Assembly: GCA_016929065.1 (NCBI GenBank)
Contig: JAFGJO010000038.1
Coordinates: forward strand, 102,680 to 166,679
DNA length: 64,000 bases
Reading direction: 5' to 3'
Source of the DNA: Spirochaetales bacterium
GTDB lineage: Bacteria; Spirochaetota; Spirochaetia; SZUA-6; RPPD01
Both the position numbers and the translations under genes were made by a program. Shown piece by piece: positions 27,559 to 31,278 of this stretch. Each line of letters begins with the position of its first letter. The stretch's first letter is position 1. A model generated the notes under the pieces. It was given only the letters and a program-made list of their open reading frames with translations. It was not told the DNA's origin and did not search any database.

Positions 27559-28473
27559 GTGGCTAAAAATGTATTTAGACCGACAGAGGTAACAAATCTT
27601 ACAAAAAAGGTTTTTATCGAGCCTCCCCAATTCAAGAAGGAAGAACCGGTTCAGGTCATCGAAGAGGTAGAAGATATTTCCATGCCTCCTGCTGCCCTGC
27701 AGGAATATATGCGTGAAGCAGAAGATTTCAAAACAAATTGGGACCAGGAAAAAAACCAGATGATTGCGGATGCAAAAACAGAGGCAGACCGGATTATCAA
27801 GGAAGCGGAAAAGGTTGCCTTTGAGGAAGTCCGTAAAAAAAACAACCAGGCACAGAAAATAAAACAGGATGCGGAAGCAGAAGCAAAAAAAATAATCGAG
27901 GGCACACAGCGGGAAGCAGATGAACTGAAACAGGCTGCCACGCAGAAAACACAGCAGATTGAAAACGAGGCATTTGAACGGGGATACCGGGAAGGCCACG
28001 AACAGGGATTCAAGGGTGGCAAAGAGGAAGTGGATCGGCTTATTGAGCGGCTGCACCTGATATTGAACAAAGCGATAGAAAAGCGGAATGAAATTATTGA
28101 GGTTTCTGAAACACAGCTGATAAATCTGGTTCTGCTGATTTCGAAAAAAGTGATCAAGGTCATTTCAGAGAATCAGAAAAATGTGGTGATCAACAATGTC
28201 ATCCAGGCCCTGCGGAAACTTAAAAGCCGGGGTGATGTGGTGATTCGTGTCAATTTGAGCGATCTGGATCTTACTACGGAGCATATCAAGGATTTTATGA
28301 AGATGGTGGAGAATGTCAAATCGATCACAGTGCTGGAAGATTCATCAGTCGACAAGGGCGGCTGTATTATAGAAACGGATTTTGGCCAGATCGACGCGCG
28401 GATATCCTCGCAGCTTCATGAGATTGAGGAAAAAATTATTGAGATGATGCCGATCAGGGTCAAGGGTGAATAA
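27559..28473 (+). CDS. fliH: Flagellar assembly protein FliH
   Basis: Charged coiled-coil with GYREGHEQGFKGG; position between fliG and fliI. Confidence 0.9.
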   Translation: MAKNVFRPTEVTNLTKKVFIEPPQFKKEEPVQVIEEVEDISMPPAALQEYMREAEDFKTNWDQEKNQMIADAKTEADRIIKEAEKVAFEEVRKKNNQAQKIKQDAEAEAKKIIEGTQREADELKQAATQKTQQIENEAFERGYREGHEQGFKGGKEEVDRLIERLHLILNKAIEKRNEIIEVSETQLINLVLLISKKVIKVISENQKNVVINNVIQALRKLKSRGDVVIRVNLSDLDLTTEHIKDFMKMVENVKSITVLEDSSVDKGGCIIETDFGQIDARISSQLHEIEEKIIEMMPIRVKGE

Positions 28474-28720
28474 GATAAGAAACGATTGTTTCTTATCTTA
28501 TTCACCTGGGAGAAACGGATATTTTCCATTTAAGCAGTCAAGGAAAATATCCGTTCTCCACGGGATTATATTTTATGAAAAAACTGCAATACCTGTTTAG
28601 GGGAGGGATGACGAAAAAAACTTCGTTTTTATCGTCCGGAGTTTGAAAGATTTATTATAAGAGGAGTTGAATCTTTCAAACTCCATAACCATTATTTTAT
28701 AAAGGATTTTTTGAAAATCC
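28465..28720. repeat. Array of five tandem hairpins between fliH and fliI
   Basis: 28465-28506 (18-bp perfect stem), 28509-28559 (18 bp, one bulged A), 28610-28636 (11 bp, one mismatch), 28638-28684 (15-bp perfect), 28704-28720 (7 bp). Confidence 0.85.
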
Positions 28721-28747
28721 GCCAAACCCGGGGGAAGGGGGATATGA

Positions 28748-30106
28748 ATGACAGGAATGTTTGACAAATACACAACTGTGCTCGATAAGATCGATCCAAT
28801 TAAATGGACCGGTGTTATTGAACGCATACAGGGACTGCTGGTTGAAAGTTATGGCCCTTCAGCGGTTGTCGGTGAATTGTGTCAAATCCTTATCCCAAAG
28901 GGGAAAGGCGTTGTCTGGGCCGAGGTGGTTGGACTGAGCGGGAAGCATGTTCAGCTTATGCCGTTCGATGAAATGGAAGGCATTGAAGTGGGAAATGTTG
29001 TCATCGCCATGGGAGAGACTCTTTCTGTTCCGGTCTCTGACAAACTGCTCGGACGTGTTCTCAATCCCATGGGAAAACCTATTGACCAGAAAGGCGATAT
29101 CGGGTCATCTGATTTTTATTCTATTTTTAACGATCCCTCAAATGTTCTGAGACGAAAACGGATTACAGAACCCATTTCAACCGGAATCCGTTCAATAGAC
29201 GGCCTCTTGACGGTCGGAAAAGGACAGCGGCTTGGTATCTTCTCGGGAAGCGGCGTCGGAAAATCAACTCTTCTGGGAATGATCGCCCGCAATACTTCCG
29301 CAGATGTCAACGTTATTGCACTGATCGGAGAGCGGGGCAGGGAAGTAAGAGAATTCCTCGAGAATGATCTGGGGGAGGAAGGGCTTAAACGTTCTGTGGT
29401 GATCGTTGCCTCATCAAACAGCCCTCCATTATCCAGAATCCGAGGTGCCTATGTGGCAACCGCTGTCGCAGAATATTTCCGTGATCAGGGAAAAGATGTC
29501 ATGCTGATGTTTGATTCGGTGACACGCTTCGCAAGAGCCCAGCGCGAAATAGGCCTTGCCGTCGGGGAACCGCCTGCAAACCGGGGCTATACCCCGAGTG
29601 TTTTTTCTTTGCTCCCGAAACTGCTTGAACGGTGCGGAACCGGAGAAAAGGGAACGATTACCGGATTTTATACAATTCTTGTCGAGGGTGATGATATGGA
29701 TGAACCCATCGCAGATACGGTACGTGGGATTCTCGACGGTCACGTAGTTCTGGCAAGGCGGCTCGCGGAAAAAGCGCATTATCCGGCTGTGGATGTCCTT
29801 CAGTCAATATCGCGGCTTGCCATTACCGTTGCCCCCCCCGCAGTGACAAAATCTGCAAGTTTCGTTAAAAAAATGCTTGCAGTGTATAAGGACGCAGAGG
29901 ACCTTATTAATGTCGGAGCCTACGTCAAAGGGTCAAATCCCGAGATTGATGAAGCCATTGACAAGATGCCTGTGATCAATAATTTTCTTCAGCAGGAAAT
30001 AACTGAAAAATCAGATTTGAATAATACGTTCTCTGCCCTGGGGAATGTTGCGGGAATAGAGATCAGCACAGAGGGGGCCCATGAGGAAGTTCCAGTTTCG
30101 TCTTGA
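28748..30106 (+). CDS. fliI: Flagellum-specific ATPase FliI
   Basis: GIFSGSGVGKSTLLGMIAR, MLMFDSVTRFARAQREIGLAVGEPPANRGYTPSVFSLLPKLLER. Confidence 0.97.
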   Translation: MTGMFDKYTTVLDKIDPIKWTGVIERIQGLLVESYGPSAVVGELCQILIPKGKGVVWAEVVGLSGKHVQLMPFDEMEGIEVGNVVIAMGETLSVPVSDKLLGRVLNPMGKPIDQKGDIGSSDFYSIFNDPSNVLRRKRITEPISTGIRSIDGLLTVGKGQRLGIFSGSGVGKSTLLGMIARNTSADVNVIALIGERGREVREFLENDLGEEGLKRSVVIVASSNSPPLSRIRGAYVATAVAEYFRDQGKDVMLMFDSVTRFARAQREIGLAVGEPPANRGYTPSVFSLLPKLLERCGTGEKGTITGFYTILVEGDDMDEPIADTVRGILDGHVVLARRLAEKAHYPAVDVLQSISRLAITVAPPAVTKSASFVKKMLAVYKDAEDLINVGAYVKGSNPEIDEAIDKMPVINNFLQQEITEKSDLNNTFSALGNVAGIEISTEGAHEEVPVSS

Positions 30107-30543: not shown

Positions 30544-31149
30544 GTGCCGGAGTACAGTACCATACCAGTCAGCTTGAGAATATTTGTTCTTTTGCTCATC
30601 ATATTTTTACTTATCATTCTTGGGTTTATTGTATTGTCAAGTCTGGGGATTATTGACACCCGCGGGCTTCTTGCGCCGTTTTACCGTCTTGTCGGGATTT
30701 CCACGCAGACAGAAATCGATGTTGATGACCCGCTTCTTCTGGTTCACCAGCGGGAGAAAAAGAACACTGATGCACTCCTTTTATGGGAAGAGGAACTGGC
30801 CCTTAAGGAAAAAGAGATTTCAGAGCGTGAATCGGATATAAAACAAACCGAGGAGCGTCTGACCGAGGAAGAAAAAGCATTGCAAGAAGCAGAAAAAACA
30901 ATCAAGGAAGGGACAAAAGATTTCGATGATAGAAGAAGACGGCTGGAACAAAAGTCGGAACAGCTACTGAGCATGCCGCCGGAGAATGCGGTAAAGATTA
31001 TGCTTGCAATGGATGACATGGAGGTCATTGAAGTGCTTCGGGTGACCGAGGAACTCGCCGTGCAGAATAACGAACTGTCAATTGTTCCGTACTGGATATC
31101 TTTGATGCCCCCCGAGCGGGCAGCGGATATTCAGCGCAAATGGCGATAG
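30544..31149 (+). CDS. flbB: FlbB/MotE-like protein (spirochaetal periplasmic collar protein candidate)
   Basis: N-terminal TM, coiled coil, MgtE-N-like tail NAVKIMLAMDDMEVIEVLRV...ISLMPPERAADIQRKW; position between fliJ and fliK as in Borrelia. Confidence 0.75.
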   Translation: MPEYSTIPVSLRIFVLLLIIFLLIILGFIVLSSLGIIDTRGLLAPFYRLVGISTQTEIDVDDPLLLVHQREKKNTDALLLWEEELALKEKEISERESDIKQTEERLTEEEKALQEAEKTIKEGTKDFDDRRRRLEQKSEQLLSMPPENAVKIMLAMDDMEVIEVLRVTEELAVQNNELSIVPYWISLMPPERAADIQRKWR

Positions 31150-31272
31150 GGAATGAATAATAAACCAAAATGGGATTATTATTCATTCCTTGGAGTCCGA
31201 CCACTAACTTTGTAAGTGATCGGACATCCAGATATTTGGAAGACAATTAAAAACTGCAGTTTTTAATTGTCT
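31150..31272. repeat. Three tandem hairpins between flbB and fliK
   Basis: GGAATGAATAATAA/TTATTATTCATTCC (14-bp perfect); GTCCGACCACT/AGTGATCGGAC (10/11); AGACAATTAAAAACTGCAGTTTTTAATTGTCT (32-nt perfect palindrome). Confidence 0.85.
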
Positions 31273-31278
31273 ACGGAT

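What the first reader, a model, noticed from the sequence alone, without database searches (positions are those of the whole stretch)
28465..28720. Five strong hairpins in series between fliH and fliI
Within 256 bp inside the flagellar operon there are five consecutive inverted repeats: 18-bp perfect (spanning the fliH stop codon), 18 bp with one bulged A, 11 bp with one mismatch, 15-bp perfect, and 7 bp. None has a terminator-type T-run on the + strand, and fliI follows immediately. The stems differ in sequence, so the conserved property appears to be structure rather than sequence. Possible roles: differential stability or processing of the polycistronic mRNA, RNase III sites, or a nested palindromic element.
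Basis: partly seen in the sequence, partly recalled or inferred. Interest (0 to 1): 0.8.

Follow-up and report, generated by a model that had tools for sequence, protein, structure and literature searches.

The report
Dispersed multi-hairpin repeat in flagellar operon
The five hairpins between the flagellar genes fliH and fliI are two back-to-back copies of a small non-coding hairpin element scattered through this spirochaete genome; its copies share a shape far more than a sequence, which makes it an unusual cousin of known bacterial palindromic repeats rather than a flagellar switch.

Summary
In detail: five hairpins at 28465-28720, RNA fold z = -9.2, no terminator T-run. A second array of three hairpins sits before fliK (31150-31272). 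Both junctions are short in relatives (fliH-fliI median 28 nt in 73 spirochaete loci, 274 nt here; fliK mostly 15-20 nt), so the hairpins are lineage-specific insertions.

They are not unique. HP2 and HP4 belong to a dispersed hairpin family: conserved foot GGAGTT/AACTCC, often a TTCCTTAA-type apex, and middle stems that differ in sequence but stay complementary. About 20-24 copies lie in this genome. A covariance model built without any window sequence ranks the two window hairpins first in 64 kb. Copies often abut a partner hairpin ('A'), and several carry a small third one ('C'), so the array reads as two tandem A-B-C copies, with a third before fliK. A related 150-bp C-B-A element, with terminal inverted repeats and probable target duplications, is present in tens of copies in another spirochaete genus.

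Best reading: a MITE/REP-like dispersed element in DNA. Stems are almost purely Watson-Crick, suggesting DNA-level arm correction. Effects on mRNA are plausible but untested, and the mover is unknown.

The parts
28465..28506 (+). HP1 = 'A' hairpin of copy 1 (19 bp, 4-nt loop); left arm overlaps the fliH stop codon
28508..28560 (+). HP2 = 'B' hairpin of copy 1 (TGGAGAA...TTTCTCCC on the minus strand), family member
   Evidence: held-out model R2: 30.4 bits, E 2.6e-5 in 64 kb; R1 54.5 bits
28561..28609 (+). spacer between the copies; only weak structure where a 'C' hairpin would be expected; SD-like AGGGGAGGG at its end
   Evidence: inference
28610..28636 (+). HP3 = 'A' hairpin of copy 2 (GACGA...TCGTC, one mismatch); same foot as the A hairpin at L240 6663-6715
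28637..28685 (+). HP4 = 'B' hairpin of copy 2 (CGGAGTTTGAAAGATT...AATCTTTCAAACTCCA), family member
   Evidence: held-out model R2: 34.9 bits, E 1.8e-6; ends-only pattern
28704..28720 (+). HP5 = small 'C' hairpin of copy 2 (GGATTTT-TTG-AAAATCC)
   Evidence: read from the sequence; fold
31150..31189 (+). 'A' hairpin of copy 3, starting directly after the stop codon of ORF 30544-31149
31191..31230 (+). 'B' hairpin of copy 3 (TGGAGTCCGA...TCGGACATCCA), short form, weak model match
   Evidence: R2 17.6 bits, E 0.05; architecture as in L250 and L082
31231..31240 (+). linker GATATTTGGA, shared in pattern with CAATATATTGGA (L250) and CTGTATAGTGGAAG (L082)
31241..31272 (+). 'C' hairpin of copy 3 (AGACAATTAAAAACTGCAGTTTTTAATTGTCT); compensatory variants at L250, L041, L082
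27559..28473 (+). fliH
   Evidence: PF02108
28748..30106 (+). fliI; keeps its own SD-like GGGGGAAGGGGG
   Evidence: PF00006/PF18269
31267..32598 (+). fliK (ORF as listed from TTG 31267; the ATG at 31278, downstream of the C hairpin, is an alternative start)
   Evidence: PF02120

Best explanation
The array is two tandem copies (HP1+HP2 and HP3+HP4+HP5), and the fliK junction a third copy, of a non-coding dispersed DNA element made of abutting hairpins in the order A-B-linker-C. SHOWN: a dispersed structured family with about 20-24 copies in this genome, lineage-specific insertion at the two flagellar junctions, recurrent A-B architecture, and covarying, almost purely Watson-Crick stems. INFERRED: (1) it spread as a non-autonomous MITE/REP-like element moved in trans by a transposase; (2) after insertion each hairpin's two arms are kept complementary by DNA-level correction (template switching on the hairpin during replication), so shape persists while sequence drifts; (3) in the polycistronic flagellar mRNA the hairpins fold and may hinder 3' exonucleases or be cut by RNase III, as a by-product rather than the reason they exist.
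For: Ends-only pattern GGAGTTN{16,46}AACTCCA: 24 hits in the own genome against 3 for the reversed control, i.e. 15 distinct sites, 13 of which pair throughout although only the 6-bp feet were asked for. Covariation on 11 copies: 92% of cells paired, 13/19 pairs changed on both sides, score 0.589 against 0.166 shuffled and at most 0.13 slid. Model R2, built without window sequence, ranks HP4 and HP2 first in 64 kb (E 1.8e-6, 2.6e-5) and recovers seven own-genome sites that are not in its alignment. Whole-genome model search: about 20 sites at E <= 0.003. 16 of 26 B sites have a strong hairpin abutting within 4 nt; 6 of 2000 random positions do. A-B-linker-C recurs at window 31150, L250 and L082. 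In G008 a 150-bp C-B-A element occurs in tens of copies at up to 98% identity, with inverted termini matching at 15 of 17 positions and flanking direct repeats of at least 4 bp in 4 of 5 copies. Gaps are short in relatives. Family stems: 100 WC, 2 GU, 1 AC, 1 other; tRNA acceptor stems of the same genome: 132 WC, 14 GU (Fisher p 0.017).
Against: No close relative with an empty site was available, so transposition itself is not shown. Own-genome copies have no terminal inverted repeats, unlike G008. No transposase was tied to the element: the single RAYT-like gene has no such hairpins beside it. In same-strand gaps with identifiable A and B, A lies on the stop-codon side in 8 of 8 (p 0.008), and A abuts tRNA 5' ends within about 0-2 nt in five cases; random insertion does not predict either. 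Taken over all hairpins without a T-run in same-strand gaps, G-U exceeds A-C (17:4; a looser count gave 11:10), which would suit RNA-level constraint.
Confidence: 0.7

Rival explanations
1. Selected mRNA processing and stabilisation element: the hairpins protect the fliF-fliG-fliH part of the transcript and set its ratio to fliI and downstream genes, as in SRPS operons.
For: Very stable structures without T-runs in an operon, A hairpin at the stop codon; SRPS operons are documented in Clostridium (PMC8219983); sense-oriented in 8 of 8 same-strand gaps; genome-wide G-U excess in same-strand gap hairpins.
Against: Absent from this gap in the relatives; the same family also sits in divergent and convergent gaps and next to tRNAs; family stems are poor in G-U.
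Confidence: 0.22
2. REP/RAYT system: the hairpins are REP-type sequences moved as single-stranded DNA by the HUH transposase at G000:C20:31345.
For: The protein matches NCBIfam REP_Tyr_transpos at 77.6 bits (cut-off 80) and Pfam Y1_Tnp; RAYT-like genes are also in G008 and G022; palindromic, extragenic, dispersed; a RAYT-like gene in G013 is followed by two tandem hairpins.
Against: No unpaired GTAG/CGTC-type tag: GGAG here is paired in the stem; stems are 15-19 bp; no element beside the own RAYT gene; G001 has a Y1 transposase but no model hit; G008 copies look like TIR+TSD insertions.
Confidence: 0.2
3. Independent palindromes: each hairpin arose on the spot by template switching, with no shared element.
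For: Near-perfect arms; template switching can create perfect hairpins in one event (PMC8794818); the conserved end of fliH forms part of an HP1 arm.
Against: Shared feet, apex and A-B order among unlinked sites; held-out model finds the window copies.
Confidence: 0.06
4. Tandem intrinsic terminators or an attenuator ending fliH transcription.
For: Hairpin directly after a stop codon; tandem hairpins with T-runs exist elsewhere in this genome (L069 14423).
Against: No T-run on the + strand; fliI, fliJ, fliK and other genes of the same operon continue downstream on the same strand.
Confidence: 0.03

Closest known systems
REP / BIME / REPIN with RAYT (TnpA_REP)
   Same: short extragenic palindromes, dispersed, compound arrays, complementary stem variants, RAYT-like gene in the genome
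   Different: no GTAG/CGTC tag, longer stems (15-19 bp against 5-13), tens rather than hundreds of copies, stems of the own copies almost unrelated in sequence (PMC3733652, PMC8266576)
Bacterial MITEs
   Same: non-coding, about 130-150 bp, intergenic, many copies; in G008 inverted termini and probable 4-bp target duplications
   Different: own-genome copies have no TIR and hardly any sequence identity
IS200/IS605-derived palindromic elements (PATEs; free-standing IS605 stem loops of Borrelia, PMC2775950)
   Same: palindromic ends, free-standing stem loops in a spirochaete
   Different: three abutting hairpins; no cognate IS identified; G008 flanks suggest target duplication, which that family lacks (own knowledge)
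SRPS intercistronic stem-loops (PMC8219983)
   Same: strong hairpin after a stop codon inside an operon
   Different: not conserved at the locus; same family found outside operons

Membership tests
REP/RAYT | unpaired GTAG (or CGTC-type) tag at the foot of the hairpin | tested here: not met
   foot is GGAG paired with CTCC in 11 of 11 aligned copies
REP/RAYT | RAYT gene in the genome | tested here: inconclusive
   one gene, REP_Tyr_transpos 77.6 bits, just under the curated cut-off of 80
REP/RAYT | RAYT gene flanked by the repeats | tested here: not met
   no strong hairpins and no R1 match beside the own gene
REP/RAYT | cleavage of the hairpin as ssDNA by the protein | not testable with these tools
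   needs biochemistry
MITE | dispersed non-coding copies | tested here: met
   about 20 own sites; tens of copies in G008
MITE | terminal inverted repeats | tested here: inconclusive
   present in G008 (15/17 over the first 17 nt); not seen in own-genome copies by reading their ends
MITE | target site duplication | tested here: inconclusive
   4 of 5 G008 copies flanked by direct repeats of 4-6 bp, 3% at random offsets; own genome has no empty site
MITE | cognate autonomous transposase | not tested
SRPS intercistronic element | stable stem-loop in an intra-operon gap without terminator T-run | tested here: met
SRPS intercistronic element | altered stability or processing of the transcript | not testable with these tools
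   no RNA data
Known Rfam RNA family | match above gathering score | tested here: not met
   none in the window; only sub-threshold hits at the arrays
Intrinsic terminator | GC-rich stem followed by T-run | tested here: not met

The most novel reading that the evidence does not exclude
A mobile hairpin element that inserts flush against the foot of existing stem structures or gene ends (tRNA 5' ends, stop codons, its own earlier copies), and whose arms are continually rewritten from each other, so that its shape is inherited while its sequence is not.
Probability: 0.15. Interest if true: 0.78.

Novelty: new variant of a known kind. Interest (0 to 1): 0.52.

Why it matters
Dispersed palindromes are normally recognised because copies share sequence. 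Here copies within one genome have largely lost sequence identity yet keep fully paired stems, which a sequence-only repeat search missed. It gives a natural test of whether hairpin arms are maintained by replication template switching or by RNA selection, and warns that covariation among genomic copies is not proof of an RNA function. The tRNA and stop-codon placement is a concrete, testable puzzle.

Tried and rejected
BLAST-type searches with the array found nothing in plasmids and no other copy in the own genome, which first suggested unrelated hairpins; structural patterns overturned this. Covariation in the fliH-fliI gap of relatives could not be tested because the gap is too short there. 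Rfam: no family. The raw GGAGTT...AACTCC pattern is not specific in other genomes, so a covariance model was used. Terminators rejected. Assembly fold-back artefact rejected by reading: sequence after each hairpin is unique and runs on into fliI. Integron attC considered; the GTTRRRY/RYYYAAC core sites were not seen by eye and no formal test was run. Weak model hits in other families (G034, G049, G067, G233, E 0.004-0.009 in about 300 genomes) are at chance level. An early G-U/A-C count was superseded by better-defined sets. A first tRNA control was mis-indexed and redone.

Full report
CHECK OF THE OBSERVATION. The five hairpins are present at the stated places; HP1 is 19 bp rather than 18. 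The RNA fold of 28440-28760 is far better than shuffles (z -9.2), no terminator-type T-run follows any of the strong stems, and among 397 intergenic gaps in 1.25 Mb of the genome only two have a larger excess folding energy. Pfam confirms fliH, fliI and fliK. A second, unreported array of three hairpins fills the gap before fliK (31150-31272, z -8.8).

LINEAGE-SPECIFIC. The genome is a spirochaete; nearest named records are MAGs Zod_Metabat.1377 and .934. In 73 related loci the fliH-fliI gap has a median of 28 nt; here it is 274 nt. The next largest, 216 nt in the same-family genome G001, holds an unrelated purine/pyrimidine hairpin. The gap before fliK is usually 15-20 nt in relatives and 117 nt here. 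The hairpins are therefore insertions in this lineage, not an ancestral flagellar control region.

NOT UNIQUE. A sequence search of the own genome with the array found only itself. A survey of hairpins over 1.64 Mb showed other arrays with shared seams: window 31150-31272, L250 8870-9010 and L082 3090-3212 all read A hairpin, B hairpin (TGGAGT...ACTCCA or ACATCCA), linker ending TGGA(AG), C hairpin, in the sense of the flanking genes. L240 6663-6765 matches HP3+HP4 at its seams. An ends-only pattern for B gave 24 hits against 3 for the control; of the 15 distinct sites 13 are paired throughout.

STATISTICS OF THE FAMILY. Eleven aligned B hairpins: 92% of cells paired, 13 of 19 pairs changed on both sides, covariation score 0.589 against 0.166 +/- 0.028 shuffled and 0.08-0.13 when slid. 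Some rows of that alignment were chosen because they are hairpins, so a stricter model, R2, was built from eight copies, seven of them from the ends-only pattern and none from the window; its covariation score is 0.579. R2 places HP4 and HP2 first in the 64-kb window (E 1.8e-6 and 2.6e-5) and gives the fliK copy only E 0.05. It also recovers seven own-genome sites not in its alignment (L321, L324, L326, L328-L331) and none in the sampled stretches of G002, G012 and G025. R1 finds about 20 sites at E <= 0.003 in the whole genome. In relatives, clear hits are only in G008 and G022, one genus of another family.

ARCHITECTURE. Of 26 B sites, 16 have a strong hairpin abutting within 4 nt, against 6 of 2000 random positions. 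On this basis the array is read as copy 1 = HP1(A)+HP2(B), copy 2 = HP3(A)+HP4(B)+HP5(C), and the fliK array as copy 3. The assignment of HP1, HP3 and HP5 rests on position next to B, not on their own sequence, and is an inference. In G008 the same kind of element, 150 bp, C-linker-B-A, is repeated in tens of copies at up to 98% identity. There its ends are inverted repeats (15 of 17) and 4 of 5 copies examined have a 4-6-bp direct repeat on both sides. That the own-genome and G008 elements are homologous is likely, not proven.

WHY THE STEMS STAY PAIRED. In the unbiased B set the inner eight pairs are 100 Watson-Crick, 2 G-U, 1 A-C, 1 other. tRNA acceptor stems of the same genome, a known selected RNA, are 132 Watson-Crick and 14 G-U (Fisher p 0.017). 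Evolution by single steps under RNA selection should leave G-U intermediates; their rarity, with A-C about as frequent, points to a DNA process that renews one arm from the other. Template switching is a documented process of that kind (PMC8794818). This is inference; the counts are small, and over all same-strand-gap hairpins G-U does exceed A-C (17:4).

PLACEMENT. The outer end of A lies within -12 to +6 nt of a stop codon in eight same-strand cases, always on the stop side. Insertion between stop codon and ribosome-binding site of short operon gaps would explain the closeness but not the uniform orientation. In four of 21 sampled tRNA genes a long hairpin ends 0-2 nt from the 5' end, and a fifth is read at the tRNA-Met of L089/L317. 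I have no proven explanation for this.

MECHANISM AND VERDICT. Most likely a MITE/REP-like dispersed element, three copies of which landed in the flagellar operon, with structure preserved by DNA-level arm correction. Effects on the mRNA (exonuclease barrier, RNase III substrate) are plausible and untested. It resembles REP elements but fails their tag test and the RAYT-neighbour test, so it is not filed as REP. MITE features are met in G008 but only partly in the own genome. It is best called a new variant of dispersed bacterial palindromic elements.

Noticed in passing
window 31150-31272: Second array of three hairpins filling the gap before fliK; treated here as a third copy.
   Followed up: yes
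L316, L319, L322/L248, L331/L064, L317/L089: Long hairpins ending about 0-2 nt from the 5' end of tRNA-Lys, Cys, Glu, Arg and Met genes, each next to a B hairpin.
   Followed up: partly
L102 3790-4000 (G001, same family): The same fliH-fliI gap holds an unrelated long purine/pyrimidine hairpin (CACGAAGGGCACGAAG... / ...CTTCGTGTCCTTCGTGGTG), z -7.7.
   Followed up: partly
L043 17697, L082 272, L240 9648: Another repeated hairpin, CCCGACCACTAAATTTACGATTTAGTGGTCGGG; the B hairpin at window 31191 shares CGACCACTAA with it.
   Followed up: no
window 28577-28648: A 23-codon ORF (MKKLQYLFRGGMTKKTSFLSSGV) runs through the gap; its internal ATG at about 28609 directly follows SD-like AGGGGAGGG, possibly a relic of the old fliI start.
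   Followed up: no
G000:C20:31345-31683 (L191 3319-3846): Single RAYT-like Y1 transposase gene, REP_Tyr_transpos just under cut-off, no hairpins beside it.
   Followed up: partly
L186 2212-2281 (G013): Two tandem hairpins downstream of a RAYT-like gene, one sharing CTTGCAA with the G008 element.
   Followed up: no
L062 5602-6067: A further series of several nested and abutting hairpins in one 466-nt gap, the largest folding excess in the sample.
   Followed up: no
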